64,000 nucleotides of DNA from Flagellimonas allohymeniacidonis. GTDB taxonomy: Bacteria; Bacteroidota; Bacteroidia; Flavobacteriales; Flavobacteriaceae. The notes under the pieces were generated by a model. That model was not told the DNA's origin and did no database searches. It was given only the letters and a program-made list of their open reading frames with translations. Positions 29,856 through 37,350 of the stretch are shown piece by piece; position 1 is the stretch's first letter, and every line of letters begins with the position of its first letter. The translations under genes were made by a program, and so were the position numbers. The stretch is taken from positions 261,882 to 325,881 of the forward strand of contig NZ_SGIU01000002.1 of the NCBI RefSeq assembly GCF_004296335.1, given 5' to 3'.

Positions 29856-30065
29856 TTACCCCCTCAAAACCCCACAAATACTTCGCAAAGCAGCCGCCAC
29901 ATTTTGAATTTCGGCTCGGGCAAAAGCACCTTCCTCTACATAAAATAGCATTTCGACACCCTGATCCAATACTTCAGCTAGTTTACTTGGTGAGCCATAG
30001 CCCTCCTTGATCATATTGAACAAGTGTTTTGGCTTTTGACTCTCTTCATTTTCATCCATCGTCAT
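29856..30065 (-). CDS. 69-residue protein divergent from XRE regulator
   Basis: The sequence begins MTMDENEESQKPKHLFNMIKEG, then SPSKLAEVLDQGVEMLFYVEEGAFARAEIQNVAAALRSICGVL. It is mostly predicted helical with no known motif. Two starts two codons apart are possible; the first ATG lies inside the first operator (30061-30078). It is divergent from a 71-residue XRE regulator and shares twin operators with it, which suggests a controlled pair (regulator plus partner or antitoxin-like protein). Function unknown. Confidence 0.6.
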   Translation of the reverse strand: MTMDENEESQKPKHLFNMIKEGYGSPSKLAEVLDQGVEMLFYVEEGAFARAEIQNVAAALRSICGVLRG

Positions 30066-30078
30066 AATTATTTATGAC
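30061..30078. promoter_or_regulatory. Operator 1 GTCATAA-N4-TTATGAC
   Basis: An inverted repeat with 7-bp arms and a 4-bp spacer. It overlaps or abuts the start of the minus-strand 69-residue gene. It has the same arms and spacing as operator 2, centres 43 bp apart. Confidence 0.75.
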
Positions 30079-30102
30079 ATAAATATAATTAAAAATCAAC
30101 AT

Positions 30103-30122
30103 AGTCATAACATGTTATGACT
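30103..30122. promoter_or_regulatory. Operator 2, 20-bp perfect palindrome
   Basis: GTCATAA-CATG-TTATGAC with one more paired base on each side. It lies about 50 nt before the XRE gene. Together with operator 1 it is the probable binding site of the XRE protein. Confidence 0.78.
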
Positions 30123-30171
30123 TTTTATCAGTTTAATCTATTCAAATTTGCCTTGTACGTAATAATTTATT

Positions 30172-30387
30172 GTGACGAGGAAAGAGCTTTCCATAAAAAT
30201 TGGGAATAGAATCAAACAGTTGAGAAATGAGAGAAATATTTCCCAAGCTGAATTAGGACGACTTTGCAATCGCGATAAACAACACATCGAGCTTATCGAA
30301 AACCATAAGGTTTCTGCAAACACGTACACACTCTACACTATAGCAACGGCTCTGAACATCGAACTCAAAGAACTGTTTGACTTTTAA
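30172..30387 (+). CDS. XRE-family helix-turn-helix regulator
   Basis: 71 residues with a GTG start; no in-frame ATG exists upstream near it. The whole protein is one HTH_3/cro-C1 domain: IGNRIKQLRNERNISQAELGRLCNRDKQHIELIENHKVSANTYTLYTIATALNIELKELFDF. Size and form resemble controller (C) proteins of restriction-modification systems and small flavobacterial regulators. No restriction or methylase gene is within the window. The twin GTCATAA/TTATGAC operators in the divergent intergenic region are its likely sites, implying autoregulation. The cyclase gene follows 25 nt after its stop. Confidence 0.85.
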   Translation: MTRKELSIKIGNRIKQLRNERNISQAELGRLCNRDKQHIELIENHKVSANTYTLYTIATALNIELKELFDF

Positions 30388-35205: not shown

Positions 35206-36366
35206 ATGATTCTTACCGATTCTCTTCTGGATTTCTTTCTGGAAACCCGAAAACATTCCGAAGATATTTGCTCACCGCTTGAAACTGAGGATTATGTAGT
35301 GCAGCCTGTGGTGGACGTGAGTCCGCCCAAATGGCATTTGGGTCATACTACCTGGTTTTTCGAGGAATTTATCCTGAAACCCCATGCTTCTGATTATACG
35401 GAATTCAATGAGGATTTCTCTTTTGTCTTCAACAGTTATTACGAAACTGTGGGCAAACGGGTGGTTCGATCAGACCGTGGGAATCTTTCACGGCCTTCGG
35501 TAAAAAAGGTATACGAATACCGAGAGTATGTTACAGAAGGCATCAAAGGCTTTTTTCAGGAATCACAAAGCAAGGAACTGAATGCCTTGTTGGAGATTGG
35601 CATCCATCATGAAAAGCAGCATCAAGAATTATTGTTGACCGATATCAAGTTTATTCTGGGGAATAATCCTCTGTTACCGGTTTACTCCAAAGCATTTCAA
35701 GACCACCCTGTAGAGACGCACCAACAGGACTGGATTTCCGTGGAAGCGGGCATCTATGAAATTGGACATACCGCGGAGGATTTCTGCTACGACAATGAAT
35801 TGGGCAGACATAAGGTCTACCTTCAGTCCTACGAAATCTCAAATCGGTTGGTCACCAATGGTGAATATCTTGAGTTTATCAACGATAGTGGCTACGGCCG
35901 GTTTGACCTTTGGCATGCCGAGGGTTGGGACTGGGTAAACCAAAATCAAGTCTCTGCCCCCTTATATTGGCATGAAGTGGAAGGTGAATGGTATCACTAC
36001 ACTGCCCAAGGTTTGCAAAAGATAGATTCCAATGCCCCGGTGACCCATATCTCCTATTTTGAGGCTTTTGCTTATGCGCAATGGAAGGGTCTTCGGTTAC
36101 CCACAGAATTTGAATGGGAAGCGGCTCAAGCTTTTTTCCCTTGGGGCAAACGATGGGAATGGACCGAAAGCGCTTATTTGCCCTACCCCAACTATAAAAA
36201 GGCCGATGGTGCCCTGGGCGAATACAACGGAAAATTTATGGTCAACCAAAAGGTGTTGCGCGGTGGTTCGGTGGCCACGCCGGCGAAACACACCCGGCAC
36301 ACCTATAGAAACTTTTTTCACCCCCAATTACGATGGCAGTTTACCGGTATCCGGTTGGCCAAATAA
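35206..36366 (+). CDS. egtB: Ergothioneine sulfoxide synthase EgtB
   Basis: 386 residues. N-terminal DinB-like domain with the HX3HXE iron motif (HHEKQHQE; His135, His139) and His47 in WHLGHTTWF as a third ligand. The C-terminal FGE-sulfatase domain runs VEAGIYEIGH...GLRLPTEFEWEAAQAFFPWGKRWEWTESAYLPYP...VLRGGSVATPAKHTRHTYRNFFHPQLRWQFTGIRL. It joins hercynine with cysteine or gamma-glutamylcysteine to form the sulfoxide. It is slightly shorter than the mycobacterial enzyme (about 430). egtD follows, so the assignment is firm. egtA and egtC were not seen, hinting at the cysteine-using variant. A TATCTTTA near 35181 may be its -7 element. Confidence 0.92.
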   Translation: MILTDSLLDFFLETRKHSEDICSPLETEDYVVQPVVDVSPPKWHLGHTTWFFEEFILKPHASDYTEFNEDFSFVFNSYYETVGKRVVRSDRGNLSRPSVKKVYEYREYVTEGIKGFFQESQSKELNALLEIGIHHEKQHQELLLTDIKFILGNNPLLPVYSKAFQDHPVETHQQDWISVEAGIYEIGHTAEDFCYDNELGRHKVYLQSYEISNRLVTNGEYLEFINDSGYGRFDLWHAEGWDWVNQNQVSAPLYWHEVEGEWYHYTAQGLQKIDSNAPVTHISYFEAFAYAQWKGLRLPTEFEWEAAQAFFPWGKRWEWTESAYLPYPNYKKADGALGEYNGKFMVNQKVLRGGSVATPAKHTRHTYRNFFHPQLRWQFTGIRLAK

Positions 36367-36381
36367 CTTCAGCACCCAAAC

Positions 36382-37350
36382 ATGCAGAACAAAAATACGC
36401 CTGTATTCACCTCAGCCTTTGAGCAAGAGGTCTTTGAAGGTTTAACGACCTTTCCCAAACATTTATCCTCCAAATATTTTTATGATGAGGTGGGGGATAA
36501 ACTCTTTCAGGACATTATGGCGATGCCCGAGTATTATCTTACCAATTGTGAATTTGATATTCTTGAAAACCATAAAGAGGAAATAGCCAGCTTGTTTGCC
36601 CAAAATGGGGACCCTTTTAGTTTGTTTGAACTCGGTGCGGGAGATGGCAAGAAAACCAAGATTTTACTTCAACATCTTGTCGACAAGAGCATTGCCTTCG
36701 ATTATAGGCCTATCGACATCAGTCAAAACGCCCTGGACCAGTTGGAGGCATCTTTAAAACTAGAAATTCCGCAGGTGAGTATCAATACCTTGCAAGGCAC
36801 TTATTTTGATACACTTCGTGATATAGGCGAAACCAACGGTAGGCGAAAGGTGATTTTGTTCTTGGGCTCCAACATTGGAAATCTTTTACATCCCCAAGCC
36901 GTGGAATTCTTGATAAATATGAGAGATGCCATACATGAAGATGATTTGATTTTCATGGGCCTTGACCAGAAAAAAAATCCCCAGACGATTTTAGATGCCT
37001 ACAATGACAAAGCTGGTATTACCGAGGCGTTCAATAAAAACATCTTGAGTCGAATCAATAAAGAAATGGGCGGGGATTTCAATCTCGATAATTTTCTGCA
37101 TTGGGAGGTTTACGACCCAGAAACGGGAACAGCGAAAAGCTATTTGGTCTCCAAAGTGGAGCAAACGGTACATATCGAAAGTTTGGACCTCGAAGTACGA
37201 CTGAAGCGTTGGGAGACCATCCACACCGAAATCTCACAGAAATACGATGATGAGGTTGTGGAATGGTTAGCTGAAAAATCAGGACTACAAGTGGTCACTT
37301 CTTTTTCGGATCCCGAAGAGTATTTTAAAAACTATGTCCTAAAAAAATAG
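36382..37350 (+). CDS. egtD: L-histidine N-alpha-methyltransferase EgtD
   Basis: 322 residues. Three-fold SAM-dependent methylation of histidine to hercynine. LSSKYFYDEVGDKLFQDIMAMPEYYLTNCEFDIL is the typical EgtD N-terminal block. FELGAGDGKKTKILLQHL is the SAM-binding loop, VILFLGSNIGNL and DAYNDKAGITEAFNKNILSRINKEMGGDFNLD the histidine-site region. It follows egtB by 15 nt and precedes the DUF427 gene by 2 nt, so they form one operon. SAM consumption links it loosely to the metK genes earlier, but no common regulation is seen. Confidence 0.93.
   Translation: MQNKNTPVFTSAFEQEVFEGLTTFPKHLSSKYFYDEVGDKLFQDIMAMPEYYLTNCEFDILENHKEEIASLFAQNGDPFSLFELGAGDGKKTKILLQHLVDKSIAFDYRPIDISQNALDQLEASLKLEIPQVSINTLQGTYFDTLRDIGETNGRRKVILFLGSNIGNLLHPQAVEFLINMRDAIHEDDLIFMGLDQKKNPQTILDAYNDKAGITEAFNKNILSRINKEMGGDFNLDNFLHWEVYDPETGTAKSYLVSKVEQTVHIESLDLEVRLKRWETIHTEISQKYDDEVVEWLAEKSGLQVVTSFSDPEEYFKNYVLKK

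What the first reader, a model, noticed from the sequence alone, without database searches (positions are those of the whole stretch)
29856..30387. Divergent XRE regulator and 69-residue protein with twin operators
Seen: GTCATAA-N4-TTATGAC twice (30061-30078 and 30104-30121), centres 43 bp apart, about four helical turns, one touching the minus-gene start. Known: controller proteins of restriction-modification systems and phage repressors use such paired sites for switch-like control. No restriction, toxin or phage gene is present, so the pair may be a minimal self-contained switch or the remnant of a lost system.
Basis: partly seen in the sequence, partly recalled or inferred. Interest (0 to 1): 0.7.

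Follow-up and report, generated by a model that had tools for sequence, protein, structure and literature searches.

The report
Regulator-small protein module with persistent operators
A tiny DNA-binding regulator and the small protein gene beside it form a recurring module in marine flavobacteria, and in many related species the regulator is missing while its DNA landing site and its own style of promoter stay in front of the small gene, which suggests that something still unknown reads those sites.

Summary
In detail: GTCATAAN4TTATGAC occurs exactly twice in the 3.57-Mb genome, both between these genes. The pair is not a lone remnant. The 69-aa protein belongs to a family without a database model, found in 52 of 60 genomes of its genus group, often in several copies. 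Five XRE types sit divergently beside 41 of 131 copies read. For four types an operator was defined; XRE type matches operator in 34 of 35 loci and in 14 of 14 loci from other records. No restriction, toxin or phage gene appeared among 10 neighbours scanned. The surprise is the 90 copies without XRE: 83 keep one of the four operators, though no such genome has an intact cognate XRE (0 of 85 genome-type cases). Their promoter geometry is that of the XRE's own promoter: operator centre 29-30 bp before the -7 box in 75 of 86. My reading: in the window a C-protein/lambda-like switch (XRE activates itself from about -42 and represses the small gene); orphan copies sit behind that kind of promoter and are read by an unidentified unlinked factor. 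Binding, activation and the small protein's job are inferred.

The parts
29856..30065 (-). Small protein gene, 69 aa (second ATG 6 nt downstream is an alternative start); acidic protein of a family without a database model, modelled as three helices
30172..30387 (+). Type-A XRE regulator, 71 aa, GTG start
30061..30078 (.). Operator O1, exact palindrome over the start of the small gene; present (0-2 mismatches) in 9 of 9 XRE-linked type-A loci scanned
30104..30121 (.). Operator O2, exact palindrome; centre 30 bp upstream of the putative XRE -7 box and 25 bp upstream of the putative -7 box of the small gene
30159..30176 (.). Possible third operator, 2 mismatches, over the XRE start; not found in the 8 other type-A loci scanned, probably fortuitous
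30080..30087 (-). Putative -7 box of the small gene (TATATTTA on the minus strand)
   Evidence: -7 consensus from passages of PMC9723704
30143..30150 (+). Putative -7 box of the XRE gene (CAAATTTG)
   Evidence: -7 consensus from passages of PMC9723704

Best explanation
The window holds a complete XRE-linked form of a recurrent flavobacterial module. The XRE dimer binds O2, about -42 from its own start site, and activates its own gene. From O2 (about -38 for the small gene) and O1 (over its start) it represses the small gene, giving a self-sustaining switch whose output is the small protein. The module exists in at least four operator specificities, each with its own XRE. In 90 of 131 copies the XRE is absent (relics show loss in at least some), the small gene sits behind an XRE-type promoter (in some cases by inversion of the operator-promoter segment, in one case with a 4-bp longer spacer), and the operator is kept by selection because an unlinked, unidentified factor reads it. 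Shown by sequence: pairing, type matching, operator retention, geometry, no intact cognate XRE found, purifying selection on the small ORF. Inferred: binding, activation and repression, direction of change for most copies, the unlinked reader, and the small protein's job (dose-controlled effector or partner protein).
For: XRE type equals operator type: A 9/9, B 7/7, C 8/8, E 10/11; shuffled background at most 0.0015 per region. Check on 26 loci from records not read before: all 14 XRE-linked ones match, 8 of them titled outside the group (two are the same sequence). Geometry: the XRE's own box core lies at 30 bp (type B 29) in A 9/9, B 7/7, C 7/8, E 10/10; towards the small gene at 26 in A 8/9 and E 10/10; in orphans towards the small gene at 30 (B 29) in A 22/25, B 12/14, C 28/32, E 13/15, and in 7/7 further orphans. 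The sequence after the operator in orphans resembles the XRE promoter (identity 0.39-0.48, null 0.28-0.30) and not the small-gene promoter of XRE-linked loci (0.19-0.32, null 0.27-0.31) in all four types. Operator columns in orphans carry 1.59-1.76 bits, the left flank 0.21-0.35; 21 of 25 type-A orphans have a perfect palindrome. No orphan genome has an intact XRE of its type: A 0/25, B 0/13, C 0/32, E 0/15 (resting on searches). Orphan pairs: median dN/dS 0.15 over 69 pairs. XRE relics beside orphans: G031, G050, G051, G027, G050. L189 against L187: 95-bp inverted match, E 1.9e-5. L150 against L142: direct match, box at 30 instead of 26.
Against: No binding or expression data, and the unlinked reader was not found. 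With operators masked, 63 of 86 orphans match XRE-linked loci better inverted, but 22 direct and 1 ties; L150 is not inverted. Seven of 90 orphans carry none of the four motifs (3 of these 7 have ORFs under 55 aa); 5 of the 83 others also have short ORFs. Type D (5 loci) has no recognised operator; type-E locus L199 and type-C locus L478 outside the group (limit 2 mismatches) lack theirs. The box core used for XRE-linked loci (TT[TGA][GCA]) is looser than that for orphans (TT[TG][GC]) and also scores at other offsets: type A 8/9 at 35 and 16, type C 8/8 at 26 (22/32 in orphans), type E 10/10 at 31 and 26. Distant XREs exist in some orphan genomes: an A-like XRE at 45% with a GTCATAT-like palindrome in G031 and one at 43% in G053 (both with type-A orphans), 42-55% relatives of type E in several, about 41-46% relatives of type C in a few, so a diverged reader of XRE kind is not excluded. 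Some genomes are incomplete MAGs. -42/-38 rest on a -7 box position published for another flavobacterium.
Confidence: 0.55

Rival explanations
1. The module is a plain XRE autorepressor of a small gene, and orphan operators persist because XRE-bearing forms come and go within each species, so the operator is re-used often; no other reader exists.
For: XRE-linked and orphan states occur at the same site groups; some losses look recent: L187/L189 dS 0.30 with a relic XRE carrying two stops.
Against: Many orphan-orphan pairs listed exceed dS 1 while operators stay near-perfect; orphan spacing differs from the small-gene promoter of XRE-linked type-A and type-E loci (30 against 26), whereas simple XRE loss should leave the 26-bp form.
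Confidence: 0.2
2. The small protein itself (alone or in a complex) reads the operator in orphans, having replaced the XRE.
For: The operator follows the small gene in genomes without the XRE; 34 of 35 exact type-A palindromes in 99 genomes and 20 of 20 exact type-C matches in 60 genomes lie beside a small gene.
Against: Every group mean is acidic, pI 4.5-5.1, charge -3.9 to -6.3; the profile does not match XRE; the model is three helices with no structural match at E<=0.001; operator type and small-protein clade are partly decoupled, e.g. L194 in the type-C locus with an E-like operator.
Confidence: 0.1
3. A toxin-antitoxin or immunity pair: the XRE is the antitoxin/immunity regulator and the small protein a toxin.
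For: Size and pairing; the XRE has weak similarity to Y4mF-family antitoxins (TIGR03070, E 3.7e-8, 33.2 bits against a cut-off of 71.65).
Against: Divergent rather than operonic; 90 of 131 copies have no XRE beside them, 82 of these with an ORF of 55 aa or more, and orphan pairs are under purifying selection, which a toxin needing this XRE would not allow.
Confidence: 0.07

Closest known systems
Controller (C) proteins of type II restriction-modification systems (C.AhdI, C.Kpn2I)
   Same: Small XRE-fold protein (nearest solved chain C.AhdI); two dimer sites; activation of the own operon from a distal high-affinity site is described for EcoRV (passages of PMC6237814). The Kpn2I C-box oligonucleotide printed there contains GTCATA/TATGA-type half-sites like those here.
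   Different: No restriction or methylase gene among the neighbours scanned; the partner is a small protein of unknown function; the regulator is often absent while operator and partner stay.
Lambda-type repressor circuits (cI at PRM, operator near -42)
   Same: Divergent promoters, operator about -42 from the regulator's own promoter (analogy recalled, not from a call).
   Different: No phage gene among the neighbours scanned; no hit of the small protein in 50,697 phage records, 72,556 plasmids or, by pattern search, IMG/VR; the XRE is 71 aa, too short for a further domain.
CylR2/CylR1 of Enterococcus
   Same: CylR2 is a 66-aa XRE and the second nearest solved relative (E 2.7e-4); it works with a small partner (recalled).
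   Different: CylR1 is recalled as a membrane protein; the small protein here was modelled as three helices and is acidic. The two were not compared.

Membership tests
R-M controller (C) proteins | Small XRE/HTH protein of the C-protein kind | tested here: met
   C.AhdI E 5.8e-6; PADLOC Control_protein 1.4e-8, second to HTH_VI 5e-11
R-M controller (C) proteins | Linked restriction endonuclease and methyltransferase genes | tested here: not met
   No R-M hit for the 9 neighbours of the XRE among 10 proteins scanned at 23.2-32.7 kb
R-M controller (C) proteins | Two-site operator upstream of own gene, positive then negative autoregulation | tested here: inconclusive
   Sites and geometry present; regulation not measurable here
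Phage lysogeny switch | Prophage context or phage relatives of both genes | tested here: not met
   Small protein not found in phages, plasmids or IMG/VR; XRE hits in 54 phage records all under 60% identity and to HTH PHROGs; the 9 other proteins scanned have no phage function, two of them match PHROGs of unknown function
Type II toxin-antitoxin | Toxin cannot be kept without its antitoxin | tested here: not met
   90 of 131 copies lack an XRE beside them; orphan pairs under purifying selection. Toxicity itself not tested
Known protein family for the small protein | Match to Pfam, NCBIfam, PHROGs or PADLOC | tested here: not met
   78 members scanned: scattered hits only, best E 0.0015, no family matched by more than 5 members
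XRE superfamily (small protein as degenerate XRE) | Profile homology to XRE | tested here: not met
   hhalign probability 0.4, 4 columns

The most novel reading that the evidence does not exclude
A genus-wide family of small proteins whose genes have taken over the promoters of their own lost regulators, in four parallel operator specificities. Each operator is still read, at about -42, by a dedicated unlinked activator not yet identified, so regulators are swapped out while the operator code persists.
Probability: 0.4. Interest if true: 0.78.

Novelty: new variant of a known kind. Interest (0 to 1): 0.6.

Why it matters
Operators are expected to decay once their regulator is gone. Here 83 of 90 copies without a linked regulator keep one of four operators, mostly at a fixed distance to the promoter. 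That makes a clear question testable: what reads them? It also offers a natural series for how a promoter changes from a repressed to an activated-looking layout (26 to 30 bp, or inversion). A bench precedent for such sensitivity is IscR (abstract of PMC8561392: moving the -35 element by 1 nt turns activation into repression). And it adds a small-protein family that the four model libraries used here do not hold.

Tried and rejected
Small protein as a degenerate XRE: suggested by eye, rejected by hhalign; the AF2 model has three helices, mean pLDDT 90.9. No structural match at E<=0.001 in PDB or BFVD; best Z 5.5, to ZapD, in a second look, under the level that means anything for helical bundles. 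An absent match does not show a new fold.

Mobile carriers: no phage, plasmid or IMG/VR record with the small protein (the IMG/VR search works by short patterns). The type-A palindrome followed by TT was found in 37 viral contigs, not followed up. The XRE search of IMG/VR gave two short partial matches, not followed up.

Same-type exclusivity ('one module per type per genome'): in the main group type A is 35 copies in 35 genomes at 9 site groups; co-occurrences 0 against 9.8 expected by permutation, C 0 against 4.7, B 0 against 1.8 (13% of permutations also 0), E 0 against 4.2, or 0.5 if its sites are merged (53% also 0). Three loci with A and B operators were counted as A; counting them as B as well gives one double (G042). 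I do not lean on this: descent from one ancestral copy per type would give the same, and outside the group genome G425 has two complete type-C modules (L480, L481).

Shared 5' ends of XRE and small gene: weak, clearest in type C (0.52 against 0.43), E 0.45 against 0.40, none in A; not claimed. XRE paralogues elsewhere as readers: the ones I looked at were generic or of the related A-like lineage, not all were read. Literature: three searches on this pair; two found no paper, one listed a single unrelated title.

Rows dropped or special: 131 copies read from regions of the genus group; 8 with ORFs under 55 aa left out of protein comparisons; L136 counts as orphan but its XRE is cut by the contig end, so here it counts as XRE-linked (41 linked, 90 orphans). 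Family scans used 78 of 123 usable sequences (A1); the structure alignment used the window and 66 of 79 related-loci loci (A4). The check used 26 of those 79 loci, picked as lying on contigs not read before: 14 XRE-linked, 7 orphans with a motif, 5 with neither (one, L257, with a 3-mismatch E motif). Of 9 XRE-linked loci in other genera (two repeat) 8 have the matching operator.

Full report
Observation. They are the only exact copies in the genome. Across 99 genomes (60 of the genus group, 39 of the order) the exact palindrome occurs 35 times in 32 genomes, all in the genus group; the reversed control pattern occurs once in each of 5 genomes. Thirty-four of the 35 lie within 130 bp of the start of a small-family gene; the exception, in G048, which has no small-family hit, looks by eye to be inside a coding sequence.

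The small protein. It has relatives in 52 of 99 genomes, all among the 60 of the genus group. Record titles in a separate collection are mostly Flagellimonas, Allomuricauda or Muricauda, with a minority of others such as Croceivirga and Poritiphilus (best 80 matches kept). In 349 genomes of the family it was found in 10, each of another genus among 237, the window's included. Scans of 78 members against Pfam, NCBIfam, PHROGs and PADLOC gave only scattered weak hits, best E 0.0015, and the best PDB sequence match is E 0.3. A model from 67 sequences has three helices, mean pLDDT 90.9, pTM 0.72, with no significant structural match. Group means are acidic. Coding is under purifying selection with or without an XRE beside it: median dN/dS 0.15 for 69 orphan pairs, 0.13 for 15 XRE-linked pairs (pairs at the same site with at least 70% protein identity).

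The XRE partners. I read 131 copies. Forty-one have a divergent XRE (one, L136, cut by a contig end), of five sequence types A-E. Type motifs for A, B, C and E were defined by eye on these loci and then counted: XRE type equals operator type in A 9/9, B 7/7, C 8/8 and E 10/11, with a shuffled background of 0 to 0.0015 per region. On 26 loci from other records all 14 XRE-linked ones have the expected operator, eight with titles outside Flagellimonas/Allomuricauda/Muricauda, two of these (L274, L275) the same sequence. In genomes of other genera 8 of 9 XRE-linked loci match, L478 does not. XREs of types A (10, one cut by a contig end), B (7), C (8) and E (11) at 73% identity or more lie beside a small gene; a type-B XRE with a stop in G052 does not, as no small gene was found in G052. 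The XRE thus looks like a dedicated regulator of the small gene. In the synteny grouping flanking genes go with site, not type; three site groups hold more than one operator type. I saw no third gene that travels with the pair.

Orphans. Ninety of 131 copies have no XRE beside them; 83 carry one of the four operators (A 25, three of which also carry B; B 11 more; C 32; E 15) and 7 none. In orphans the operator columns carry 1.59-1.76 bits and the 33 bp well to the left 0.21-0.35 bits. No genome holding an orphan of a type has an intact XRE of that type: A 0/25, B 0/13, C 0/32, E 0/15 (with searches). More distant XREs, at about 29-55% identity, do occur in several of these genomes, including A-like XREs in G031 (with related palindromes) and G053. 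Relics of the cognate XRE sit beside five orphans: type A in G031, type C in G050, G051 and G027, type E in G050.

Promoter geometry. In Flavobacterium psychrophilum the TAnnTTTG box lies at -12 to -5 (passages of PMC9723704). In XRE-linked loci a box core lies 30 bp (type B 29) from the operator centre towards the XRE in A 9/9, B 7/7, C 7/8 and E 10/10, which puts the operator near -42; towards the small gene it is at 26 in A 8/9 and E 10/10. In orphans the core towards the small gene is at 30 (B 29) in A 22/25, B 12/14, C 28/32, E 13/15, and in 7 of 7 further orphans. The core is short and other offsets also score in some types (listed under evidence against), so the second test matters more: position by position the orphan stretch resembles the XRE promoter (A 0.387, B 0.478, C 0.416, E 0.411 against nulls of 0.28-0.30, sd 0.013-0.017) and not the small-gene promoter of XRE-linked loci (0.318, 0.297, 0.191, 0.314 against 0.27-0.31). 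The asymmetric type-B operator also has the orientation it has towards the XRE.

How orphans arose. In L189 (orphan, XRE relic with two stops) against L187 (complete, dS 0.30) a 95-bp stretch spanning the operators and the XRE start matches in inverted orientation (70.5%, E 1.9e-5; alignment score 78 inverted, 45 direct). Palindromes match either way, so I masked operators: 63 of 86 orphans match XRE-linked loci better inverted, 22 direct, 1 tie. L150 shows another route: its XRE is truncated, the region is not inverted, yet the box is at 30 instead of the 26 of its relative L142. Both routes end at the same geometry, which suggests selection for it.

Mechanism. I read the window as a C-protein/lambda-like switch: XRE at O2 activates itself from about -42 and, with O1, represses the small gene. 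The XRE's nearest solved relative is the controller protein C.AhdI. In orphans, conserved operators at about -42 without a cognate XRE point to an unlinked reader, most simply an activator, possibly a diverged XRE. I could not identify it. The small protein is too acidic to be an obvious DNA reader, and its clades are partly decoupled from operator type.

Limits. All of this is sequence evidence. The genomes include incomplete MAGs. Type D has no recognised operator. Counts over related genomes are not independent events.

Noticed in passing
L043-L050, L315, L320: A related XRE lineage (recognition helix KDRQA.EK.ENGKVNPT); several loci have GTCATAT-type palindromes (2-3 mismatches to the type-A motif), in some about 40 bp apart, and in L044, L045, L047 and L050 the divergent gene encodes another protein of roughly 100 aa (LPLQAYFGSLTPQK and variants), possibly a parallel module.
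   Followed up: no
L472 (G404 contig C18) 3522-15857: Five small-family copies in one 12-kb stretch without an XRE hit.
   Followed up: no
L126, L133, L160, L292: A further orphan group shares upstream sequence around GGATCA and TACTTTGGCATAATCATTCTTTA (L133 also scored as a weak type-A site), possibly another operator type.
   Followed up: no
L109, L115, L094: Orphans carrying a type-A operator at the -42 position and a type-B motif (2-4 mismatches) just downstream of the -7 box, as if one activates and the other represses.
   Followed up: no
Type-E orphans, e.g. L208, L214: Their -7 box TAnnTTGC resembles motif SM5 (TAnnTTGY), ascribed to an alternative sigma factor in F. psychrophilum (passages of PMC9723704).
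   Followed up: no
L275: A contig labelled Sneathiella MAG shows the same upstream sequence and XRE as a flavobacterial MAG contig (L274); probably mis-binned.
   Followed up: no
window 35206-37350: Two genes that look by eye like an EgtB/OvoA-type and an EgtD-type ergothioneine pair (recalled, not searched).
   Followed up: no
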